From a virus: a stretch of DNA of 41,024 nucleotides. Made by a program: the position numbers and the translations under genes. Location: positions 1 through 41,024 of IMG/VR virus record IMGVR_UViG_3300047678_000436. One strand, written 5' to 3'. Under the pieces are notes generated by a model. The model ran no database searches. It was not told the DNA's origin and saw only the letters and a list, made by a program, of their open reading frames with translations. This document shows positions 6,308 to 30,752 of the stretch, one piece after another. Position 1 is the stretch's first letter. Each line of letters starts with the position of its first letter.

Positions 6308-6774
6308 AAGAAATCGCCGTCGGATCCCGCGCGCAATTTTCGATGATCGTCGACGACGTCGACTATGACTTTCTCATCCAGTGGCCGTGGAGCTTCGCGC
6401 GCTCGCACCCGCGGACCGGCGGCGAGCTGATCTATGCGCGGCGCACGGTGCGCGTCGAGGGCAACCCGCTGTGGACGCCCGAGGGCGTGAAGCCGACGCG
6501 GAAGAAATTCGACCTCTTCGTGCACCACGTCGTGCTCGCCCGCATGGGCTTCCCCGATGCGCCGACGCCGGACTGGACGGCCGACCACATCAGCGGCGAC
6601 ACGCTCGACAATCGCCGCGCCAATCTGCGCTGGGCGTCGGCGACGTTCCAGGAGAAGAACAAGCGGCACCTTCGCCACGTCGACCATGTCCGCCAGGCGC
6701 TCGCCGCGATGGCGCCGGCGCATACGCTGCCGTCAGGGGGGGGGCTGACCCATGCTGGCACTGAGGGCGCCTGA
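6304..6774 (+). CDS. HNH endonuclease
   Basis: A 156-residue protein. The nuclease motif is clear: VHHVVLARMG (His74-His75), WTADHISGD (Asp94-His95) and LDNRRANLRWAS (Asn103, Asn107), the HNH_3 layout of phage and homing endonucleases. The upstream part (WPWSFARSHP, GELIYARRTV) resembles the short N-terminal sheet of that family. It may be a free-standing mobile nuclease or a nuclease used by the phage. A run of nine G bases (6736-6744) lies inside its last codons, just where the next gene's ribosome binding site is expected. The 3' end overlaps the next gene by 23 bases. Confidence 0.85.
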   Translation: MKEIAVGSRAQFSMIVDDVDYDFLIQWPWSFARSHPRTGGELIYARRTVRVEGNPLWTPEGVKPTRKKFDLFVHHVVLARMGFPDAPTPDWTADHISGDTLDNRRANLRWASATFQEKNKRHLRHVDHVRQALAAMAPAHTLPSGGGLTHAGTEGA

Positions 6775-22339: not shown

Positions 22340-24925
22340 ATGCCGGCGCCGATCTATTTCAGCGAGACACCGCCGGCGGCGATCGCCGACGTGCGGATCC
22401 AGCCGCAGGCGTTGCCGAACTTTACCGGCGTCCGTTTCGGCGAAGTGCTCACCGCCGGCGCCGAGTTTGTCGGCGCGCTTGCCGCCGGCCAGGCCGAAAC
22501 GCGGAAGGCGAAGGCGACCAGCGGCTATCTCACGGAGCTCGCCGCGCTCGAGGACAGCTACGCGCAGGACCCTGACTACCAGAACGCCCCGCTCCGCTTC
22601 GACGCGGCGGCGAGCGAGCTGAGGGCGAAGTATCTCAACGACGCCAAGCTCGGCGCGGCCGATCAGGCGCAGCTCGACCTCACCTTCAACCGGATGCAGG
22701 TATCGAGCGCCGGCGGCGTCAAGGCGAAGGCGCTGGCGCGCGAGGCCGCCGACAATGCCGCGGCGCTCGACGGCCTGCAGCTCACCCTGTCCCGCCAGGC
22801 GGCGGCATCGGGCAGCCCGACCGAGCGGGCCGCCTATACCGCGCAATTCGAGGAGCGCGTCGGCGGCGCCGTCCGCAGCGGCTGGATCCCGGCAACCGCC
22901 GGCGAGAACTACCTGCAGAAATTCCGCTCGACCCTCGACGAGGCCGACATCCTGGCGGGCATCCAGACGAACCCGGCGGCGATCGCCGCGGCGCTCGACC
23001 AGCCCGACAGCTTCGCCTCGCTCGATCCGGTGACGCGGGCACGCTATCGCGCGATCGCCGCCGGCGAGGCCGACCAGGCGGGCATCGACGCCCTCGGCTT
23101 CACCGCCGAGACGAACCCGGCCGCGGCGATGCTGACCCTCAATCGCATCATCGACCCGAAGGTGGCGACGGACGTTTTCGACCGCGGCATCATCGTGCAG
23201 GAGAGCGGCGGTGACGCCGGCGCCGTCAGTCCGAAGGGCGCCCTCGGCGTCAGCCAGGTCATGCCCGAGACGGCGCGCGACATGGCACGGTTGCTCGGGC
23301 GGAAGGACATCGCCGCCCTCGGCGACGCCGACCTGAAGAAGACGCTCCTCGCCGATCCGCTCCTCAACCGCCAGCTCGGCCTCGCCTACTGGAACCAGCA
23401 GCTCGAGCGGTTCGACGGCAACGCCGCCCTGGCGCTCGCCGCCTACAATGCCGGCCCGGCGAACGCCGACCGCTGGCAGGCGAAGGCGATCGCCGAGTTT
23501 GGCGCGGATTTCACGCCGGCCGAGCTGGTCAGCGTCATCAGCTACGGCGAGACGCAGGACTACGTCATGAAGGTGTTCGGCCATGTCGGCGCCGACATCG
23601 CCGGCGCCGGGCTGACACCGCACGGGAGGGCGCGCGCGTGGAGCGCCGTCGAGACGGCGACCGCCGGCGCCAACAACGAGCGGCTGAAGGCGATCAGGGA
23701 CATGGCCGCGCTCGAGCGCGACGCCACCGATCCGCTCGACATGATCAAGGCCGGGCTGCGCGTCGACGACGGCACGACGGCCGCCTACATCGCGACGCAG
23801 CGCCAGGCGGCGGCCGCCGGCGATCGCGAGGCGGCGAAGGAGGTGCAGCGGGCCGAGACGATGCTGGCGATGAAGCCGATCGTCGATGAGGCATGGACGC
23901 AACCCGTGACAGAAACGCGGGCGATGCTGCAGGCGGCCGAGACGGCGCTCGCCGACAATCCGAGCCCCGAGCTCGCTGACCGCGTCGCGGTGCTGCGCGA
24001 AGTGACCGACGAGATCGAGAAGAAGCGGAACGACGATCCGATCGCGCTTGGCGTCCGGGCAGGGCGGTTCCGCGAGGTGACGCTCGATCCGAACGCCCCG
24101 GCGAACGACCGCGGCTTCGCCAATGCGCTTCTCTATCGCGGCAACCAGGCGATCGACGCGGCCGCGCATTTCGGCGGCAAGGTGCTGCCCTTCCACCCGG
24201 CCGAGGCCTCGGCGATCAAGGACCGGCTGGCAAAGGCCCCGGAGGGCGAAAAGCTGGCGGTGCTGACCACCATGGCCGGCGCGATGAGCAAGCCGGCCTT
24301 TCGTGCGGCAATCGGTCAGCTCGAGCTCGATCCGTTGACCGAGGCCGCGGCCATCTTCGGCGTCGAGCGGCCGGGCCTGGCGCGCCAGATCCTGCACGGC
24401 GCCGAGCTCCTCAAATCCGAGGGCGTCGCCAAGCCGGCGAAAGAGTTGCGCGAGGCGCTCGGCAATGCGGTCGGCGGCGAGCTGTGGCCCGACCCGCAGA
24501 TGCTCGACGCGGTCGCGAGCGCCGCGACGGCGGTCTATGTCGCGGCGCGCGGCGGCAACGCCTCGCTCTTCGACGCCGATGACGCCGGCGCGCTCGAGGA
24601 AGCGATCGAGGCGGTGACCGGGCCGATCGTATCGCGAAACGGCGTCAAGGTCCCGGCGCCGCCGTCGATGACGGCGGATGCCTTCGAGGCGCGCCTCGAC
24701 GCGCTCACCGACCAGGACCTCGACAGGTTCGGCGGCGCCGTCGACCGCACCGGCCGAGCGATGACCGGAGAGACGATCGCCGGCTACGGGATCCTCCGAT
24801 CGCTGACACCTGGCGGCAGCCGCTACGTCGTCGGCATGCCGTCCTCGTCGGCGCCGGACGGCTTCGCGCCCGTCCTCACCAAGGCCGGCCGGCCCCTGGT
24901 CATCGACATGGCGACGATGCCATGA
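22340..24925 (+). CDS. Internal virion protein with lytic transglycosylase domain
   Basis: An 861-residue protein with a strong ribosome binding site (GAGGAGG). Residues about 275-415 are an SLT-type lytic transglycosylase: catalytic Glu288 in IIVQESGG, GALGVSQVMPETA, AYNAGPANADRW and SYGETQDYVMKVFG, all in the right order. The rest is long helices without other motifs. The enzyme cuts peptidoglycan so that the ejected tail extension can cross the wall. In T7 this activity is on gp16, while here it is on the first of three large internal proteins. Confidence 0.9.
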   Translation: MPAPIYFSETPPAAIADVRIQPQALPNFTGVRFGEVLTAGAEFVGALAAGQAETRKAKATSGYLTELAALEDSYAQDPDYQNAPLRFDAAASELRAKYLNDAKLGAADQAQLDLTFNRMQVSSAGGVKAKALAREAADNAAALDGLQLTLSRQAAASGSPTERAAYTAQFEERVGGAVRSGWIPATAGENYLQKFRSTLDEADILAGIQTNPAAIAAALDQPDSFASLDPVTRARYRAIAAGEADQAGIDALGFTAETNPAAAMLTLNRIIDPKVATDVFDRGIIVQESGGDAGAVSPKGALGVSQVMPETARDMARLLGRKDIAALGDADLKKTLLADPLLNRQLGLAYWNQQLERFDGNAALALAAYNAGPANADRWQAKAIAEFGADFTPAELVSVISYGETQDYVMKVFGHVGADIAGAGLTPHGRARAWSAVETATAGANNERLKAIRDMAALERDATDPLDMIKAGLRVDDGTTAAYIATQRQAAAAGDREAAKEVQRAETMLAMKPIVDEAWTQPVTETRAMLQAAETALADNPSPELADRVAVLREVTDEIEKKRNDDPIALGVRAGRFREVTLDPNAPANDRGFANALLYRGNQAIDAAAHFGGKVLPFHPAEASAIKDRLAKAPEGEKLAVLTTMAGAMSKPAFRAAIGQLELDPLTEAAAIFGVERPGLARQILHGAELLKSEGVAKPAKELREALGNAVGGELWPDPQMLDAVASAATAVYVAARGGNASLFDADDAGALEEAIEAVTGPIVSRNGVKVPAPPSMTADAFEARLDALTDQDLDRFGGAVDRTGRAMTGETIAGYGILRSLTPGGSRYVVGMPSSSAPDGFAPVLTKAGRPLVIDMATMP

Positions 24926-27900
24926 CCGACTGGCAGACCGCCGAGAACGCCTATCTCGACGAGCTGGCGACGCGACCCGCAGCGCGGCCGCCGGCGACGA
25001 TCGGCGAGATATGGTCGGCGAGCTGGGGCGCCGCCGGGCTCGACACGATGTTCGGCTCGCACGCCGTCACCGACGATGCCTTGCGCGAGTATCGCGAAGC
25101 GGTGGAGCACGCCACGGGCAAGAGCCTCGTCCAGCTCGCCGGCGAACAGGGGCGCCAGGCGGCGATCTATGCCGGCCACCACAGCGAGGAAGACGAGGCC
25201 GCCGTGCTCGGCGCCGCCCTCGGCACGGTCGATCCGGAGACCCGCCAGCACCTGGTGCAGCTTTCGGACTACCGCAAGCGCGCGGCGGAGAAGGCGGCGC
25301 TCCTCGAGCGTCGCGCCGCCGACGTCGGCGAAGGCACCTACACCTTCGGCGGACAGGCCGTGTCCTTCATCGCCGGCCTGGCGCGGGTCGCGGTCGACCC
25401 CGTCAACCTCGTGACGACGGTGTTCGGCGGACCGCTGAAGGGTCCGGTCCTGAAGATGCTCGGCCGCGAGGCGCTCATCGGCGCCGGCGCGCAGGCGATC
25501 CAGGAGCCGGCGATCGAGACCGAGCGGGCGCGCCTCGGCCTCGAGAGCGGCCTCGGCCGCGCCGCCGCGAACATCGGCATGGCCGCCGGCGGCGCCGCGG
25601 GCCTCTCGCTCGTCTTCCGTGGCGCCGCTGCGGGCTTGCGCCGGCTTCGCGGCAGCGGCGAACGACCGCCGCCGCTCGACGGCGTGACGCCGGAGGATTT
25701 CGACGCGGCGGCGCTGCACGCCGAGCGGGATGAACTCGTCGACGCGCTGGCGGCGCCGCCGACGCCGGCGGGCCGGGCGCGCTCGGCCGAGAAAGTCGAC
25801 GCCGCGGCGGTAGCCATCGAGGGCGGCCGGACGCTCGCCGAAGATACGGCGCCGGCGCCGGCCATCGCCGGTGACATCTTCGGCCCGCCGCGGCCCGATC
25901 CGACGCTGACCTTCCAGCCGAAGCGCATCGTCTACTTCGACGGGGCGCGCGAGACGATCATCCGGCCGGGCGGCGCTCGTATGACCGTGCGGCCGGCGGT
26001 GATCGAGCTCAGCGACCTCATCGTCAGCCATTCGATCGACGGCAAACCGAACGCCAGCTATCCGGCGGCGCTGCAGCCGCGCGACCGCGAGGCCGCGGCG
26101 TCGCGATCGTTCATCGCCGAGCGTGCCGCCGAGCTCGAGCCCGAGCTCCTCGGCGCCTCGCCGACGGCGGCCGAGGGCGCGCCGATCGCCGGGCCGGACG
26201 GCGTCATCGAAAGCGGCAACGGCCGCACGATGATGATCGCGCGGGCCTACGATCGTCATCCGGAGCGCGCCGCGGCCTATCGCGGCTTCCTCGAGCAGCA
26301 GGGCTACGATCTCGAGGGCTTCGAGTTTCCGGTCCTGGTCCGCATCCGCGAGGGCGACCTGGCGGACCGGGCCGCCTTCGCCCGCGAAGCGAACATCTCG
26401 CCCATCGCCGGCATGTCGGCGCGCGAGCGGGCGTTCGCCGATGCGAAGCGCCTCGACGATCACATGCTGGCGCTGTGGCAGCCGGGCGAGACGTCGTCCC
26501 TCGCCAACGCGAAGTTCGTGCGTGCCTTTGCCGAGCGCGTCGTCGCGCCGGAGGAGCGGCCGCAATTCGTCTCGGCCGACAATCGGCTTTCGGCGGACGG
26601 CGCGGCGCGGGTCGAGGCGGCGCTCGTCGCGCGGGCCTGGGGCGAGCAGGACATCGTCTCGGCGCTCTACGAAGCCGCGGCGCCGACGTCGAAGGCGATC
26701 CTCGGCGCGCTCGCCGACACGGCGCCGATGGCGGCGCGGCTGAAGCTGGCGATCGCCGAGGATCGCGTGCCGGCAGCGAGCGACGTCACGGGGGACATCA
26801 TTGCGGCGTTTCGCATCGTCGAGCGAGCGCGGGCCGAGCGGTTGCCCGCGACGTCGCTCCTCGACCAGGTCGACCTCGAGCGTGGCGCCGTACCCGAAAA
26901 GGTGCGGCGCGCCGCCGAGCTCTTCTTCCGCGAGGACAAGGAAGGGCGCGATCCGTTCTTCATGCCGGCCGGCCGCGAGCTAATCGCGGCGCGGATCGAC
27001 GCGGCGATCGGCAAGGCGATCGACCAGCAGAACGCCGTCGGCGATCTCTTCGGTGGCGAGCTCGACAGCGGCGGCATCCTCCGGGCGGCGAAGCTCGCCG
27101 GCGAGGACCTCGGCGACCAGGTGCTGCCGCCGCCGAACGACCTCGTCTCGGCCGAGAGTTTCCTGCGTCAGCCGTTCGAGACGATCGACGAGCTCTATGT
27201 CCATGTCGCGGCCCACCAGGCCGAGCTCGACACGATCGGCAAGGCGATCGCGGCCGAGCTGGGGATCGAGTTCAAGACGACGGGACCGAAGGCCCGTGCC
27301 ACCGCCGAGGCGAAGCTGGCGCGCAAGGGCTACAAGTCCGCGGCGCAGCTCACCGACGTCGTCCGCGCCGGCCTCGTCGTGGCGACGCCCGACCAGGCCG
27401 ACCAGGCAATCGCGCTCCTCACCCGGCATTTCGATGTGCTCGACGAGGGCTGGGTGCGGACGCCGGCGGGCTATCTCGACCGCAAGGCGATGGTGCGCTT
27501 CGCGGATGGCATGGTCGGCGAGGTCCAGTTCTGGGAGCCGAACCTTTTCGCGGCAAAGAAGGCGAGCGGATCAAAGCTCTACACGGAAGCACGCGCCCTC
27601 GACGCGCGCGACCCGCGCCACATCGAGCTCAACCGGCAGATGGAAGAGCTCTACTCGGCGGCGCTCGCATCGGCGGCGCCGGCCTGGGCGGTGTTGGGGA
27701 GATCCAGCACGCCGAACCTTGCCTCGAAGGTGCTGCGCCAGTTGTCCTCACGCAGCACCCGGCCGCTATCGGCAACTTCGGCAGGGTTGACCAGGGTCCA
27801 AGGCTCGCCAGGAGCGAGGACGGCGAAGGCGGCGGGCACCGACCAGTCGATGACGGCGGGCCGCAGCTCCCAGTTGACGAAGACCATCGGCGCTTCTCCT

Positions 27901-28149
27901 GACCCCGAAATAAGCGCGTCGCCGGCGGAAGGCAAGGGCGTTGTCGGCGATCCGGCGATCGCCAGCGAGGCGACGCGGATCCTCGACGAGGCCGGTGGCG
28001 ATTTCGAGATCGTCGTCCCCGGCGATGACGGCACGCCCATGAAGGTATCGGCGCGCGCGTCGATCGCCGAGGCCGAGGAGGACGCGGCGGCCGCCGGCGA
28101 GCTCTTCGCCTGCATCGGCGCGACCGCGGCAAGGGAGACGGCAGCATGA
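24922..28149 (+). CDS. Polyvalent-type internal virion protein with ParB/DdrB-like and RelA/SpoT-like domains
   Basis: A 1075-residue protein in the internal virion position. The N-terminal third is helical with hydrophobic stretches. About 331-640 is a ParB-like domain of the DdrB type: RIVYFDGARETIIRPGG, VSHSIDGKPNASYP, GVIESGNGRTMMIARAYD and SADNRLSADGAARVEAAL. About 750-913 resembles a RelA/SpoT nucleotidyltransferase: KLARKGYKSAAQLTDVVRAG, GYLDRKAMVRF, GEVQFWEPNLFAAK and KLYTEAR. Such multi-domain proteins are called polyvalent proteins and are thought to act in the host after injection. About 925-989 is Ser/Thr/Arg-rich and reads like a linker; it overlaps a coding-looking minus-strand gene. 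The end (about 990-1075) is normal again. It overlaps both neighbours by ATGA. Confidence 0.8.
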   Translation: MTDWQTAENAYLDELATRPAARPPATIGEIWSASWGAAGLDTMFGSHAVTDDALREYREAVEHATGKSLVQLAGEQGRQAAIYAGHHSEEDEAAVLGAALGTVDPETRQHLVQLSDYRKRAAEKAALLERRAADVGEGTYTFGGQAVSFIAGLARVAVDPVNLVTTVFGGPLKGPVLKMLGREALIGAGAQAIQEPAIETERARLGLESGLGRAAANIGMAAGGAAGLSLVFRGAAAGLRRLRGSGERPPPLDGVTPEDFDAAALHAERDELVDALAAPPTPAGRARSAEKVDAAAVAIEGGRTLAEDTAPAPAIAGDIFGPPRPDPTLTFQPKRIVYFDGARETIIRPGGARMTVRPAVIELSDLIVSHSIDGKPNASYPAALQPRDREAAASRSFIAERAAELEPELLGASPTAAEGAPIAGPDGVIESGNGRTMMIARAYDRHPERAAAYRGFLEQQGYDLEGFEFPVLVRIREGDLADRAAFAREANISPIAGMSARERAFADAKRLDDHMLALWQPGETSSLANAKFVRAFAERVVAPEERPQFVSADNRLSADGAARVEAALVARAWGEQDIVSALYEAAAPTSKAILGALADTAPMAARLKLAIAEDRVPAASDVTGDIIAAFRIVERARAERLPATSLLDQVDLERGAVPEKVRRAAELFFREDKEGRDPFFMPAGRELIAARIDAAIGKAIDQQNAVGDLFGGELDSGGILRAAKLAGEDLGDQVLPPPNDLVSAESFLRQPFETIDELYVHVAAHQAELDTIGKAIAAELGIEFKTTGPKARATAEAKLARKGYKSAAQLTDVVRAGLVVATPDQADQAIALLTRHFDVLDEGWVRTPAGYLDRKAMVRFADGMVGEVQFWEPNLFAAKKASGSKLYTEARALDARDPRHIELNRQMEELYSAALASAAPAWAVLGRSSTPNLASKVLRQLSSRSTRPLSATSAGLTRVQGSPGARTAKAAGTDQSMTAGRSSQLTKTIGASPDPEISASPAEGKGVVGDPAIASEATRILDEAGGDFEIVVPGDDGTPMKVSARASIAEAEEDAAAAGELFACIGATAARETAA
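27651..27887 (-). CDS. Antisense 78-residue gene nested in the polyvalent gene
   Basis: On the strand opposite to its surroundings, an ATG at 27887 follows AGGAGA nine bases upstream, a strong ribosome binding site. The 78-residue product begins MVFVNWELRPAVIDWSVPAA, continues with APGEPWTLVNPAEVADSGRV and WRSTFEARFGVLDL, and ends in an Ala-rich tail. Codons almost all end in G or C, as in true genes here, whereas the plus-strand frame through the same bases uses AGA, TCA, CTA, ATA and other A/T-ending codons and encodes Ser/Thr/Arg-rich sequence. Four Trp residues and an even composition also favour real coding. The function is unknown and no family is recognised. Confidence 0.65.
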   Translation of the reverse strand: MVFVNWELRPAVIDWSVPAAFAVLAPGEPWTLVNPAEVADSGRVLREDNWRSTFEARFGVLDLPNTAQAGAADASAAE

Positions 28150-30752
28150 CGGCAAGACGATGCTTCACCAGCAAGGTCGCCGCCGGCGTCGTCTCGCAGC
28201 GCGCCGGGCAGAAGATCCTCGACATGATCGACGGCCTCGAGAAGCACCACCGGGGCAAGATCGGCAGCGCCGCCGGCGCCGTAAAGGCTGCCGCCGAAGC
28301 CGGCGAGGCGGCGATGCTGGCGGCTTCGCGGCGCGCCGACCTGGTCCGCCGATCGGCGATCGCGCAGGCGAACGTGCTGCGCTCGTTCAAGGTCTATGAC
28401 GACCTCATGGGCGACCTCAAGCGCCAGGGCAAGGCGCCGCTCATGGTGCAGCTCGCCGCGAAGCGCATCGGCGCGGCGCCGTCGCCGCTCAACGCCGCAA
28501 TGCGCTCGATGCTCGCCCGGGACCCGCACGAGATCGCGACCTGGTCGAACGCCTTCTACCTCGCCCGCGACATCCGCGGCCGCGCCCACGCCAAGTTCGC
28601 CGAGGCGATCGAGTTCCTGCGGCCGAAGGCCCTCGGCTTCAAGGCCGAGCTCGCCCGCGAGCTCGAGGTGCTGCGCGCGCTCTACGGCAAGACCGACGTC
28701 GACCCCGAGGTGCGGGCCGTCGCCGAGGCATGGGGGGCGAAGGAAGGCGTCGCCGAGGATCTGCGGCTGCAGTTCGTCGACGCCGGCGGCGCCTTGCCGG
28801 AGCGGAAAAACTGGCGCCTGCCGAACCCGACGATCGACGACGCCAAGGTGCGCGCCCTCGGGCCGGAGAAGTTCAAGGAGCTGGTCCGCGCCCATGCCGA
28901 CCGGCCGGCGATGATCGATTTCGAGACCGACCTGCCGATGACCGACGCGCGCTTCGAGAAGCTCCTCGAGGAGGCCACAAGCGGCTTTCTCTCGGGCCAC
29001 GTCGACGGGCTGCCATCGGCGGCGCCGCGCGGCCGGCCGATGCTCGCCAACAGCCGCGATTTTCCCCGGTTCTTCGTCTGGAAATCGGCGGAGAGCTGGC
29101 TGGCGATCGCCGACCAGGTCGGCACGCACAACTCGGTCTATGAGGCGATGACCGGCCACATTCACGACATGGCGCGCGACGTCGCCATGATGCGGATCTT
29201 TGGCCCGAACCCGGAGGCGACGAAGCGCTTCATCCTCGACCTCTTCGCCCGCGAGCCCGGCCGCCTGCAGCTGTCCGCCGAGGAAGCCGGCCAGAGCCTC
29301 AAGCGCGCCGTCAAGACCAACCGCCGGCTCGACGCCTCGACCCGGCGCCAGGTGCGATCGTTCGAGGGGCTTTGGGCCGAGGTAACCGGCGCCAACCGCA
29401 TTCCGGTCGACGCCGAGCTCGGCAAGACGGTCGGCGACGTCCGCTCGGCGCTGGTCGCGGCGCAAATGGGATCGGCGATCATCGCCTCGCTCAGCGACAC
29501 GGTGACGACGACGATGGCGGCGCGCTTCGCCGGCTTGCCCGTCATGAACGTCCTCGGCCGCGCCGCGGCGATGATGAGCGAGAAGGGCGCCGAAATCTTC
29601 TCGGCCCAGCAGGGGCTGATCGCCGACAGCATCGGCCAGGCGATGGGCTCGGCCGACCGCATCATGGGCGAGACGATCCGCACCGGGACGATCGCCAAGA
29701 TGGGCAGCGCGGTCATCCGCGCCTCGGGGCTCCGGCGCTGGACGGCGACGCTTCGCAACGCCTTCGGCCTCGAAATGATGGCGCATGTCGCGCGCGAGCG
29801 GGAGACGGCATTCGCCCAACTCGATCCGACCTTCCGCCAGGCGCTTGCCCGGCACGGCATCGACGAGGCGGACTGGAAGGTAATCGCCGCGGCCGAGCCG
29901 AACGAGCCGCGGCCGAACGCCCTGTTTACCCGGCCGATGGACGTCGCCGAGGCGGGGACGCCGGCGGCCCGGGCCGCGTCGGAAAAGCTCGCCAAGCTCA
30001 TCCACACCGAAATGGACTATGCCGTCATCGAGAACGACGCGATCGCGCGGGCGGTCCTCGTCGGCGACAGCCGGCCGGGCACGGCATGGGGCGAGATCCG
30101 GCGCGGCTTCGGCTTCTACCGGAATTTCACGACGAGCTTCATCGCGCTCCACTTCGCCCGCGCCTTCGCCCGCGGCTTCGACGGGCAGCGGCTGACGCAC
30201 GGCGCGCTCACCTTCCTCGGCATGACTGCCATGGGAGCGCTTTCGCTGCAGGCGAAGCAGCTCCTGCAGGGGCGCGATCCGTACTCCTTCGACCCGACGA
30301 CGAGCAATGGTTTACGCGCCTTCGGCGCCAGCATCCTGCAGGGCGGCGGGCTCGGCGTCTTCGGCGACATCTTCTTCGTCGACAAGACCCGATACGGCAA
30401 CTCCTGGGCCACGATCGTCGCTGGCCCGCAAATGTCGGCGATCGAAAGCGTGCTTGGCGATTTCCTCATCCGCAACTTCCAGCGCCTGGCGCAGGGCGAG
30501 GAGACGCATTTCCTCGGGGACGCGCTCTACATCGGGGCGCGCTACACGCCCGGCGCCTCGCTCTGGTACATGCGCCTCGCCTTCCAGCGGGCGATCGTTG
30601 ACCAGCTCGCCAGGATGATCGACCCGCGCGCGTCCGACCGCTTCCGGCGGATGGAAAAGCTGGCGCGGAAGAATTGGGGACAGGAGTTCTGGTGGGCGCC
30701 CGGCGAGGCGACGCCGTCTCGTGTCCCGGCGATCGTCGGAGCCGCGCCATGA
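28146..30752 (+). CDS. Large internal virion protein (T7 gp16-like position)
   Basis: An 868-residue protein, mostly helical, overlapping the preceding gene by ATGA. It contains FYLARDIRGRAHAKFAEAIE, WKSAESWLAIADQVGTHNSV, HDMARDVAMMRIFGPNPEAT, a hydrophobic stretch FGFYRNFTTSFIALHFARAF, and near the end FGASILQGGGLGVFGDIFF. No transglycosylase motif is visible. Together with the two preceding proteins it would form the ejectosome that carries DNA into the cell; this follows from its place before the tail fibre and from similar prophage proteins. Confidence 0.75.
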   Translation: MTARRCFTSKVAAGVVSQRAGQKILDMIDGLEKHHRGKIGSAAGAVKAAAEAGEAAMLAASRRADLVRRSAIAQANVLRSFKVYDDLMGDLKRQGKAPLMVQLAAKRIGAAPSPLNAAMRSMLARDPHEIATWSNAFYLARDIRGRAHAKFAEAIEFLRPKALGFKAELARELEVLRALYGKTDVDPEVRAVAEAWGAKEGVAEDLRLQFVDAGGALPERKNWRLPNPTIDDAKVRALGPEKFKELVRAHADRPAMIDFETDLPMTDARFEKLLEEATSGFLSGHVDGLPSAAPRGRPMLANSRDFPRFFVWKSAESWLAIADQVGTHNSVYEAMTGHIHDMARDVAMMRIFGPNPEATKRFILDLFAREPGRLQLSAEEAGQSLKRAVKTNRRLDASTRRQVRSFEGLWAEVTGANRIPVDAELGKTVGDVRSALVAAQMGSAIIASLSDTVTTTMAARFAGLPVMNVLGRAAAMMSEKGAEIFSAQQGLIADSIGQAMGSADRIMGETIRTGTIAKMGSAVIRASGLRRWTATLRNAFGLEMMAHVARERETAFAQLDPTFRQALARHGIDEADWKVIAAAEPNEPRPNALFTRPMDVAEAGTPAARAASEKLAKLIHTEMDYAVIENDAIARAVLVGDSRPGTAWGEIRRGFGFYRNFTTSFIALHFARAFARGFDGQRLTHGALTFLGMTAMGALSLQAKQLLQGRDPYSFDPTTSNGLRAFGASILQGGGLGVFGDIFFVDKTRYGNSWATIVAGPQMSAIESVLGDFLIRNFQRLAQGEETHFLGDALYIGARYTPGASLWYMRLAFQRAIVDQLARMIDPRASDRFRRMEKLARKNWGQEFWWAPGEATPSRVPAIVGAAP

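What the first reader, a model, noticed from the sequence alone, without database searches (positions are those of the whole stretch)
27651..27887. Coding-looking gene on the opposite strand, inside the polyvalent virion gene
Seen: on the minus strand, AGGAGA nine bases before an ATG opens a 78-residue frame with four Trp, balanced composition and codons ending almost always in G or C, as in the real genes of this phage. In the same bases the plus-strand frame uses A/T-ending codons and gives a Ser/Thr/Arg-rich stretch between normal segments. The big gene stays open through it. Inference: either a small gene has been inserted backwards in a tolerated linker, or one stretch codes on both strands. 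An antisense gene here could also limit expression of a potentially harmful protein in the lysogen.
Basis: partly seen in the sequence, partly recalled or inferred. Interest (0 to 1): 0.8.

Follow-up and report, generated by a model that had tools for sequence, protein, structure and literature searches.

The report
Backward immunity-like gene inside phage toxin gene
Inside a large gene for a virus-particle protein of bacterial viruses sits a second, real gene written backwards on the other DNA strand, directly behind a toxin-like enzyme domain; the same toxin-like/backward-gene pair recurs in many different phages and most likely is a poison together with its own antidote, encoded on both strands of one stretch of DNA.

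Summary
The minus-strand ORF 27651-27887 is a real, conserved gene ("MIN"), and the plus-strand virion gene also reads through it: the stretch codes on both strands. It is the second half of a module. The first half, on the plus strand just before it (about 27142-27660), is a RelA/SpoT-type pyrophosphokinase domain whose closest solved relative is Tas1, the (p)ppApp-making T6SS toxin (profile E 7e-16; fold Z 15.1). In about 20 distinct phages and prophages (GC 43-69%) a MIN homologue follows this domain on the opposite strand, in the same codon phase, usually nested in the virion ORF; in portal-fused, MuF-fused and one other locus it lies tail-to-tail. The closest relative of the host protein (L002) lacks the module. 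The module sits on either side of the same ParB-like domains and in a gp16-like virion protein, so it moves as a unit. MIN is predicted to fold confidently; its weak structural matches include Tis1, the immunity protein of Tas1. Best reading: a phage polymorphic toxin with its immunity gene buried antisense in the toxin-bearing virion ORF. Dual-strand coding is well supported; toxicity, neutralisation and expression are inferred.

The parts
27651..27887 (-). MIN: 78-aa antisense-nested gene, proposed immunity protein/antitoxin of the upstream toxin-like domain
   Evidence: Homologues in the same antisense place in about 20 distinct phages/prophages; codon score +13.6 vs -10.8; confident predicted fold, pLDDT about 90 over residues 1-60; orphan homologues elsewhere
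27895..27900 (-). Shine-Dalgarno-like AGGAGA, 7 bases before the MIN ATG
   Evidence: Read directly; most homologues have a GGAGG/AGGAG-type motif at the same place, weak or absent in L009 and L012
27142..27660 (+). RelA/SpoT-type (toxSAS-like, Tas1-like) pyrophosphokinase domain within the virion protein
   Evidence: Profile A3 matches Tas1 6ox6_A at E 7e-16; predicted fold Z 15.1 to Tas1 over 159 residues; invariant K, D, R and ExQ signature
27652..27888 (+). Plus-strand reading of the MIN gene: about 79-residue Ser/Thr/Arg-rich linker of the virion protein
   Evidence: Frame open, GC1/GC2 inverted; plus residues less conserved than minus residues in 168 of 168 pairs
27130..27950 (.). Inserted module (RSH domain plus antisense MIN), approximate limits
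   Evidence: L002, 53% identical over most of the protein, lacks residues about 737-1010
24922..28149 (+). Host ORF: 1075-aa polyvalent virion protein with ddrB-ParB domain, carrying the module before its C-terminal tail
   Evidence: Pfam ddrB-ParB 5e-29; C-terminal tail after MIN matches L002 at 48%, E 2e-10

Best explanation
The stretch is a two-gene toxin-immunity module of a temperate, podovirus-like phage in which the genes lie on opposite strands. The plus-strand part is a Tas1-like alarmone-synthetase domain built into a virion protein. The minus-strand part, MIN, is its small immunity protein/antitoxin, read from its own ribosome-binding site. Where the module sits at the end of a portal, MuF or similar protein, the two genes are simply convergent. 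Where it sits inside a virion ORF, as here, the ORF reads in frame through the antisense of MIN, so the same bases give an antidote on one strand and a disordered-looking linker on the other. Proposed working: while virion proteins are made, MIN binds the enzyme domain and blocks its active site, as Tis1 does for Tas1; the antisense transcript may also dampen the virion gene in the lysogen. MIN is not part of the virion polypeptide, so protein delivered with phage DNA into a cell lacking MIN could make (p)ppApp or a related nucleotide, while lysogens carrying MIN would be protected. Shown by sequence: dual-strand coding, conservation, mobility, fold relation of the enzyme domain to Tas1. Inferred: catalysis, toxicity, neutralisation, delivery, antisense regulation.
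For: Minus-strand coding: inverted codon-position signature; codon score beyond 104 null windows; homologous minus proteins (BLASTP 45-46% identity); BLOSUM conservation 1.62 minus vs 1.00 plus on the same columns, minus higher in 168 of 168 pairs; RBS motifs in most homologues; orphan homologues not nested in a toxin gene; confident fold. Plus strand read through: C-terminal tail after MIN matches the module-free relative; host ORFs of L003, L007, L009, L013, L014 and L016 continue 240-2000 aa. Toxin side: Tas1 profile E 7e-16, Z 15.1, invariant K54, D76, R79, E131, Q133. Pairing: MIN-type gene behind nearly every full RSH domain, in one phase; RSH and MIN distances correlate, Mantel r 0.72, 0 of 5000 permutations. 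Mobility: module on either side of the same ParB-like domains, on portal and MuF proteins, in a gp16-like internal virion protein. Immunity: extra MIN copies, orphans; Tis1, chain B of the Tas1 complex, among the weak structural matches (Z 2.9); Tis1-like proteins neutralise (pp)pApp-making toxSAS by covering the acceptor site (PMC11782079).
Against: No experiment. The Tis1 match is weak (Z 2.9, 7% identity), tied with unrelated PWWP domains, and no sequence match to Tis1 was found. No sigma-70-type promoter was found upstream of MIN, so its transcription is unproven. MIN and RSH distances would also correlate through shared descent. Near-absence of Tyr in nested MIN (3/1577 vs 14/482 free) is partly circular, as nested genes are by definition those without plus-strand stops. 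One locus (L028) has MIN copies on the same strand as a truncated RSH domain.
Confidence: 0.76

Rival explanations
1. MIN is a real antisense-nested protein, but not an antitoxin: for example a regulator, a chaperone for loading the virion protein, or a host-takeover protein that travels with the RSH domain.
For: No experiment ties MIN to neutralisation; orphan MIN genes exist without the RSH domain; no known family.
Against: Strict pairing with a Tas1-like domain, extra copies as in immunity arrays, and a weak structural match to Tis1; known phage-borne relatives (Apk2) have immunity proteins that bind the toxin (PMC12226406).
Confidence: 0.16
2. The RSH domain acts as a nucleotide-signalling enzyme for the phage (for example to push the newly infected cell into a stringent state) rather than as a toxin, and MIN switches it off during virion assembly.
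For: RelA/SpoT domains in polyvalent phage proteins have been proposed to make signal nucleotides during invasion (PMC5512222); internal virion proteins are among the carriers.
Against: Closest relative is the toxin Tas1; an attached neutraliser is typical of toxic members (PMC12691689).
Confidence: 0.2
3. The minus frame is a by-product: in GC-rich DNA this antisense phase is open by composition and the real conservation is of the plus-strand linker.
For: The phase is open over 849 codons; shared wobble positions make the two proteins correlate.
Against: GC1/GC2 inversion, coding score, higher minus conservation in 168 of 168 pairs, occurrence in phages of 43-50% GC, convergent non-overlapping homologues and orphan homologues, confident fold.
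Confidence: 0.02
4. MIN works as an antisense RNA that silences the virion gene in the lysogen; its protein is secondary.
For: The transcript would be fully complementary to the virion mRNA; the phage has an integrase and a repressor.
Against: Protein-level conservation, RBS motifs, orphan and tandem copies that are not antisense to a toxin.
Confidence: 0.03

Closest known systems
Tas1-Tis1 (Apk1), type VI secretion (p)ppApp synthetase and immunity protein
   Same: RSH domain is closest to Tas1 in sequence profile and fold; a small immunity protein; MIN has a weak structural match to Tis1.
   Different: Here the carrier is a phage virion protein, and the small gene is antisense and nested in the toxin-bearing ORF.
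Apk2 / MuF phage polymorphic toxins with IapK and Aph1
   Same: RSH toxin domain on a virion protein of temperate phages with genetically linked immunity; one relative here (L026) is a MuF fusion.
   Different: In Apk2 loci the immunity genes follow the toxin gene (PMC12226406); here the gene is convergent or nested antisense. No Aph1-like hydrolase was sought.
RelA/SpoT domains of phage polyvalent proteins (Iyer et al. 2017, PMC5512222)
   Same: RelA/SpoT domain in multi-domain phage proteins with ddrB-ParB or LPD38 domains.
   Different: That paper's main text contains neither 'antisense' nor 'opposite strand'; its RelA/SpoT cases are from spirochaete and epsilon-proteobacterial phages and MuF fusions.
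toxSAS toxin-antitoxin modules (FaRel, PhRel, CapRel)
   Same: Toxic small alarmone synthetase fold; Tis1-like antitoxins for the (pp)pApp makers (PMC11782079).
   Different: Known modules are operons or fusions; this one is built into a virion gene with the small gene on the other strand.
Antisense overlapping genes of E. coli O157:H7
   Same: A protein-coding gene embedded antisense in another gene (PMC9927249; title and abstract only read).
   Different: Here the overlap is conserved across divergent phages and moves as a unit with its partner.

Membership tests
RelA/SpoT-type pyrophosphokinase (toxSAS/SAS synthetase domain) | Synthetase fold | tested here: met
   AF2 model pLDDT 88.6; Foldseek E 1e-7 to 8vx3 and 3e-7 to 6ox6_A; Z 15.1 to Tas1
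RelA/SpoT-type pyrophosphokinase (toxSAS/SAS synthetase domain) | Conserved acidic and ExQ signature residues | tested here: met
   K54, D76, R79, E131, Q133 invariant in 26 sequences and aligned to the same residues of Tas1
RelA/SpoT-type pyrophosphokinase (toxSAS/SAS synthetase domain) | Pfam RelA_SpoT above the gathering score | tested here: not met
   No hit for the window domain; 1 of 26 members at E 0.019. The family is divergent, so this does not outweigh the fold and profile evidence; it is not a defining feature of the fold itself.
RelA/SpoT-type pyrophosphokinase (toxSAS/SAS synthetase domain) | Synthesis of (p)ppApp/(p)ppGpp or tRNA pyrophosphorylation | not testable with these tools
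   Needs a biochemical assay
Tis1-like immunity protein | Tis1 fold | tested here: inconclusive
   6ox6_B at Z 2.9, rmsd 3.2, 57 aligned residues, tied with PWWP domains
Tis1-like immunity protein | Sequence similarity to Tis1 | tested here: inconclusive
   Profile A4 against PDB chains gave only chance-level hits; Tis1 was not among those listed
Tis1-like immunity protein | Genetic linkage to a Tas1-like toxin | tested here: met
   MIN follows nearly every full-length RSH domain of this clade
Tis1-like immunity protein | Binds and inhibits the toxin | not testable with these tools
   Needs co-expression and binding assays
Phage polymorphic toxin system | Same toxin domain on different delivery or virion proteins | tested here: met
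   Portal, MuF, internal virion protein and several polyvalent proteins
Phage polymorphic toxin system | Toxin domain at the C-terminus followed by a same-strand immunity gene | tested here: not met
   Here the domain is internal and the gene is antisense; so filed as a variant, not a plain member
Antisense-nested protein-coding gene | Protein-level selection on the nested frame | tested here: met
Antisense-nested protein-coding gene | Transcription and translation observed | not testable with these tools
   No RNA-seq or ribosome profiling data

The most novel reading that the evidence does not exclude
A mobile in-frame toxin-immunity cassette encoded on both strands: it inserts into the middle of phage virion genes, keeps the host ORF open through the antisense of its own immunity gene, and so makes toxin domain, linker and antidote physically inseparable. 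Nested antisense immunity would be a recurrent design, possibly with other toxin domains too, that routine gene callers discard because they forbid overlaps.
Probability: 0.55. Interest if true: 0.88.

Novelty: new variant of a known kind. Interest (0 to 1): 0.8.

Why it matters
Fully nested, conserved dual-strand coding is rarely established in prokaryotes. Here it recurs across divergent phages of very different GC content, together with a toxin-like domain, giving a directly testable case. It would mean that immunity genes can hide antisense inside the toxin genes they serve, that a toxin-immunity pair can insert into the middle of an ORF without breaking it, and that gene callers miss such genes systematically. 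It also extends Tas1/Apk-type alarmone toxins to portal, internal virion and polyvalent proteins of phages.

Tried and rejected
Direct searches with the 78-aa protein found nothing in the phage or plasmid collections, IMG/VR or genome contigs, nor in Pfam or PHROGs; taken alone this would wrongly have refuted the gene. Homologues appeared only by searching the neighbouring plus-strand domain first and then with small alignments. tblastn of RSH domains against named phages and plasmids gave one distant hit, in Photobacterium. Synonymous-shuffle and Tyr tests for selection on plus-strand openness agree with dual coding, but the Tyr test is partly circular and was not used as main evidence. Codon-position substitution rates in two close groups were mixed (pos1/pos2 0.093/0.102 in one, 0.063/0.040 in the other), because shared wobble positions tie the frames together. 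A scan of the fetched loci for other antisense islands was dominated by ordinary neighbouring or spurious frames and gave no safe new case. My first idea that the L003/L007 host protein is the homologue of window 28146-30752 was wrong: no BLAST match; it matches a gp16-like internal virion protein. Promoter/terminator scan: nothing. Foldseek alone gave no significant match for MIN. Paper searches for antisense or nested immunity genes in phages found no prior report; the library lacks most subscription papers.

Full report
What is there. The minus-strand ORF (ATG 27887 to TAG 27651, 78 aa) and the plus ORF 24922-28149 (1075 aa, ddrB-ParB domain) are as described. One detail of the finding is wrong: the frames lie wobble-to-wobble (minus position 1 faces plus position 2), so they share GC3 (0.861). 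What inverts is GC1/GC2: plus 0.519/0.709 in this stretch against 0.765/0.527 upstream, minus 0.709/0.519. The frame being open is not evidence, since it ends an 849-codon frame that is open by composition. Its codon usage is: +13.6 on the minus strand against -10.8 on the plus strand, outside the range of 104 null windows.

An insert with two parts. The only close relative of the host protein found in IMG/VR, L002 (53% identity over residues 1-814), lacks residues about 737-1010, and the two align again at the C-terminal tail. The inserted stretch starts with a plus-strand domain, residues about 740-912, followed by the antisense ORF. Searching with that domain found three viral loci, and in each a minus-strand ORF of 75-80 aa with the same motif (xFxxWDGRPA) lies directly behind it.

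The pair recurs. Alignment-based scans of IMG/VR and genome contigs, and searches of 397 genomes from the order of one of the hosts, gave about 20 distinct loci. GC ranges from 43% to 69%. In every case where the small gene lies on the other strand behind the domain and the phase was computed, it has the same phase. It is nested in the plus ORF in nearly all of them; it is tail-to-tail or only slightly overlapping in L015, L026 and L029. The one same-strand case is L028, with a truncated RSH domain. Most starts have a Shine-Dalgarno motif.

Both strands code. On the same alignment columns the minus proteins score 1.62 and the plus residues 1.00 in BLOSUM62, minus higher in 168 of 168 pairs. 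MIN also exists without the overlap: orphan genes in L048, L052 and L053, two extra copies in a separate ORF of L007 and a tandem pair in L028. The plus frame is nevertheless used: after the antisense stretch it continues into the tail that the insert-free relative also has, or for 240-2000 more residues of the carrier protein. In several AT-richer phages the MIN proteins contain so few Tyr, His and Gln that no codon choice could close the plus frame; in GC-rich ones synonymous choices avoid stops (the Tyr comparison is partly circular).

The plus-strand domain. A profile of 26 sequences matches Tas1 (6ox6_A) at E 7e-16 over its whole length. The predicted model (pLDDT 88.6) has Tas1 as its best VIA-align match, Z 15.1 over 159 residues, and the exported alarmone synthetase 8vx3 close behind. 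The K, D..R and ExQ residues are invariant, so the domain is probably active. Pfam does not recognise it.

The minus-strand protein. No family matches. The predicted fold is confident over residues 1-60 (four strands, helix, strand, helix). Foldseek finds nothing significant. Among the 28 weak structural matches by VIA-align is 6ox6_B, the immunity protein of Tas1 (Z 2.9, 57 residues). This is tied with PWWP domains and proves nothing alone, but it is the partner chain of the very entry that the neighbouring domain matches best. Tis1-like proteins are the known neutralisers of (pp)pApp-making toxSAS (PMC11782079).

Mobility. The same ddrB-ParB-type domain lies before the module in the window, L009, L010 and L045 and after it in L013; another ParB-like region lies before it in L004, L011, L020 and L032 and after it in L014 and L016. 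L003 and L007 carry it inside a gp16-like internal virion protein, L029 behind a portal domain, L026 behind a MuF domain. RSH and MIN distances correlate (r 0.72). This is the behaviour of a polymorphic toxin module.

Biology. The window phage has an integrase and a repressor and so is probably temperate, with a podovirus-like head-tail adaptor and internal virion proteins. I infer that MIN protects the producing cell while the enzyme-bearing virion protein is made, and protects lysogens from related phages, while the virion could deliver the enzyme to cells that lack MIN. Delivery with the DNA has been proposed for MuF toxins (PMC5576092). Silencing of the virion gene by the MIN transcript is possible but untested.

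Known and new. RelA/SpoT domains in polyvalent and MuF phage proteins, toxSAS toxins, and their immunity proteins are known (PMC5512222, PMC12226406, PMC12691689, PMC11782079). In the described Apk2 loci the immunity genes follow the toxin gene. I found no report of an immunity-like gene nested antisense in the toxin-bearing virion ORF, within an open-access library only.

Noticed in passing
L029:4564-6540 (+), MIN 6543-6746 (-): Rhodoplanes locus: phage portal protein (PF04860, E 7.5e-93) fused to the RSH domain, with the MIN gene tail-to-tail behind it.
   Followed up: partly
L026:5161-6570 (+), MIN 6528-6731 (-): MuF-domain protein carrying the RSH domain with a partly overlapping convergent MIN gene.
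   Followed up: partly
L007:7856-9454 (-): Separate ORF with a membrane-like N-terminal part and two further MIN copies, like an immunity array.
   Followed up: partly
L028:6652-7239 (+): Two MIN copies in one ORF on the same strand as a truncated RSH domain.
   Followed up: partly
L048:1501-1698 (-), L052:1501-1689 (+), L053:585-773 (+): Orphan MIN genes without a detectable RSH domain nearby; L052 lies close to a virion gene that resembles the one at window 28146-30752.
   Followed up: partly
L006:2806-4638: Photobacterium plasmid with two standalone RSH-like genes in tandem with signal-peptide-like N-termini and no MIN, resembling exported alarmone synthetases.
   Followed up: no
window:2345-2569 (-): ORF made of long (Tyr-Gly)n and (Asp-Gly)n repeats.
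   Followed up: no
L059:1402-2595 (-): More distant RSH protein that Pfam does recognise as RelA_SpoT (1.6e-8), without a MIN match.
   Followed up: no
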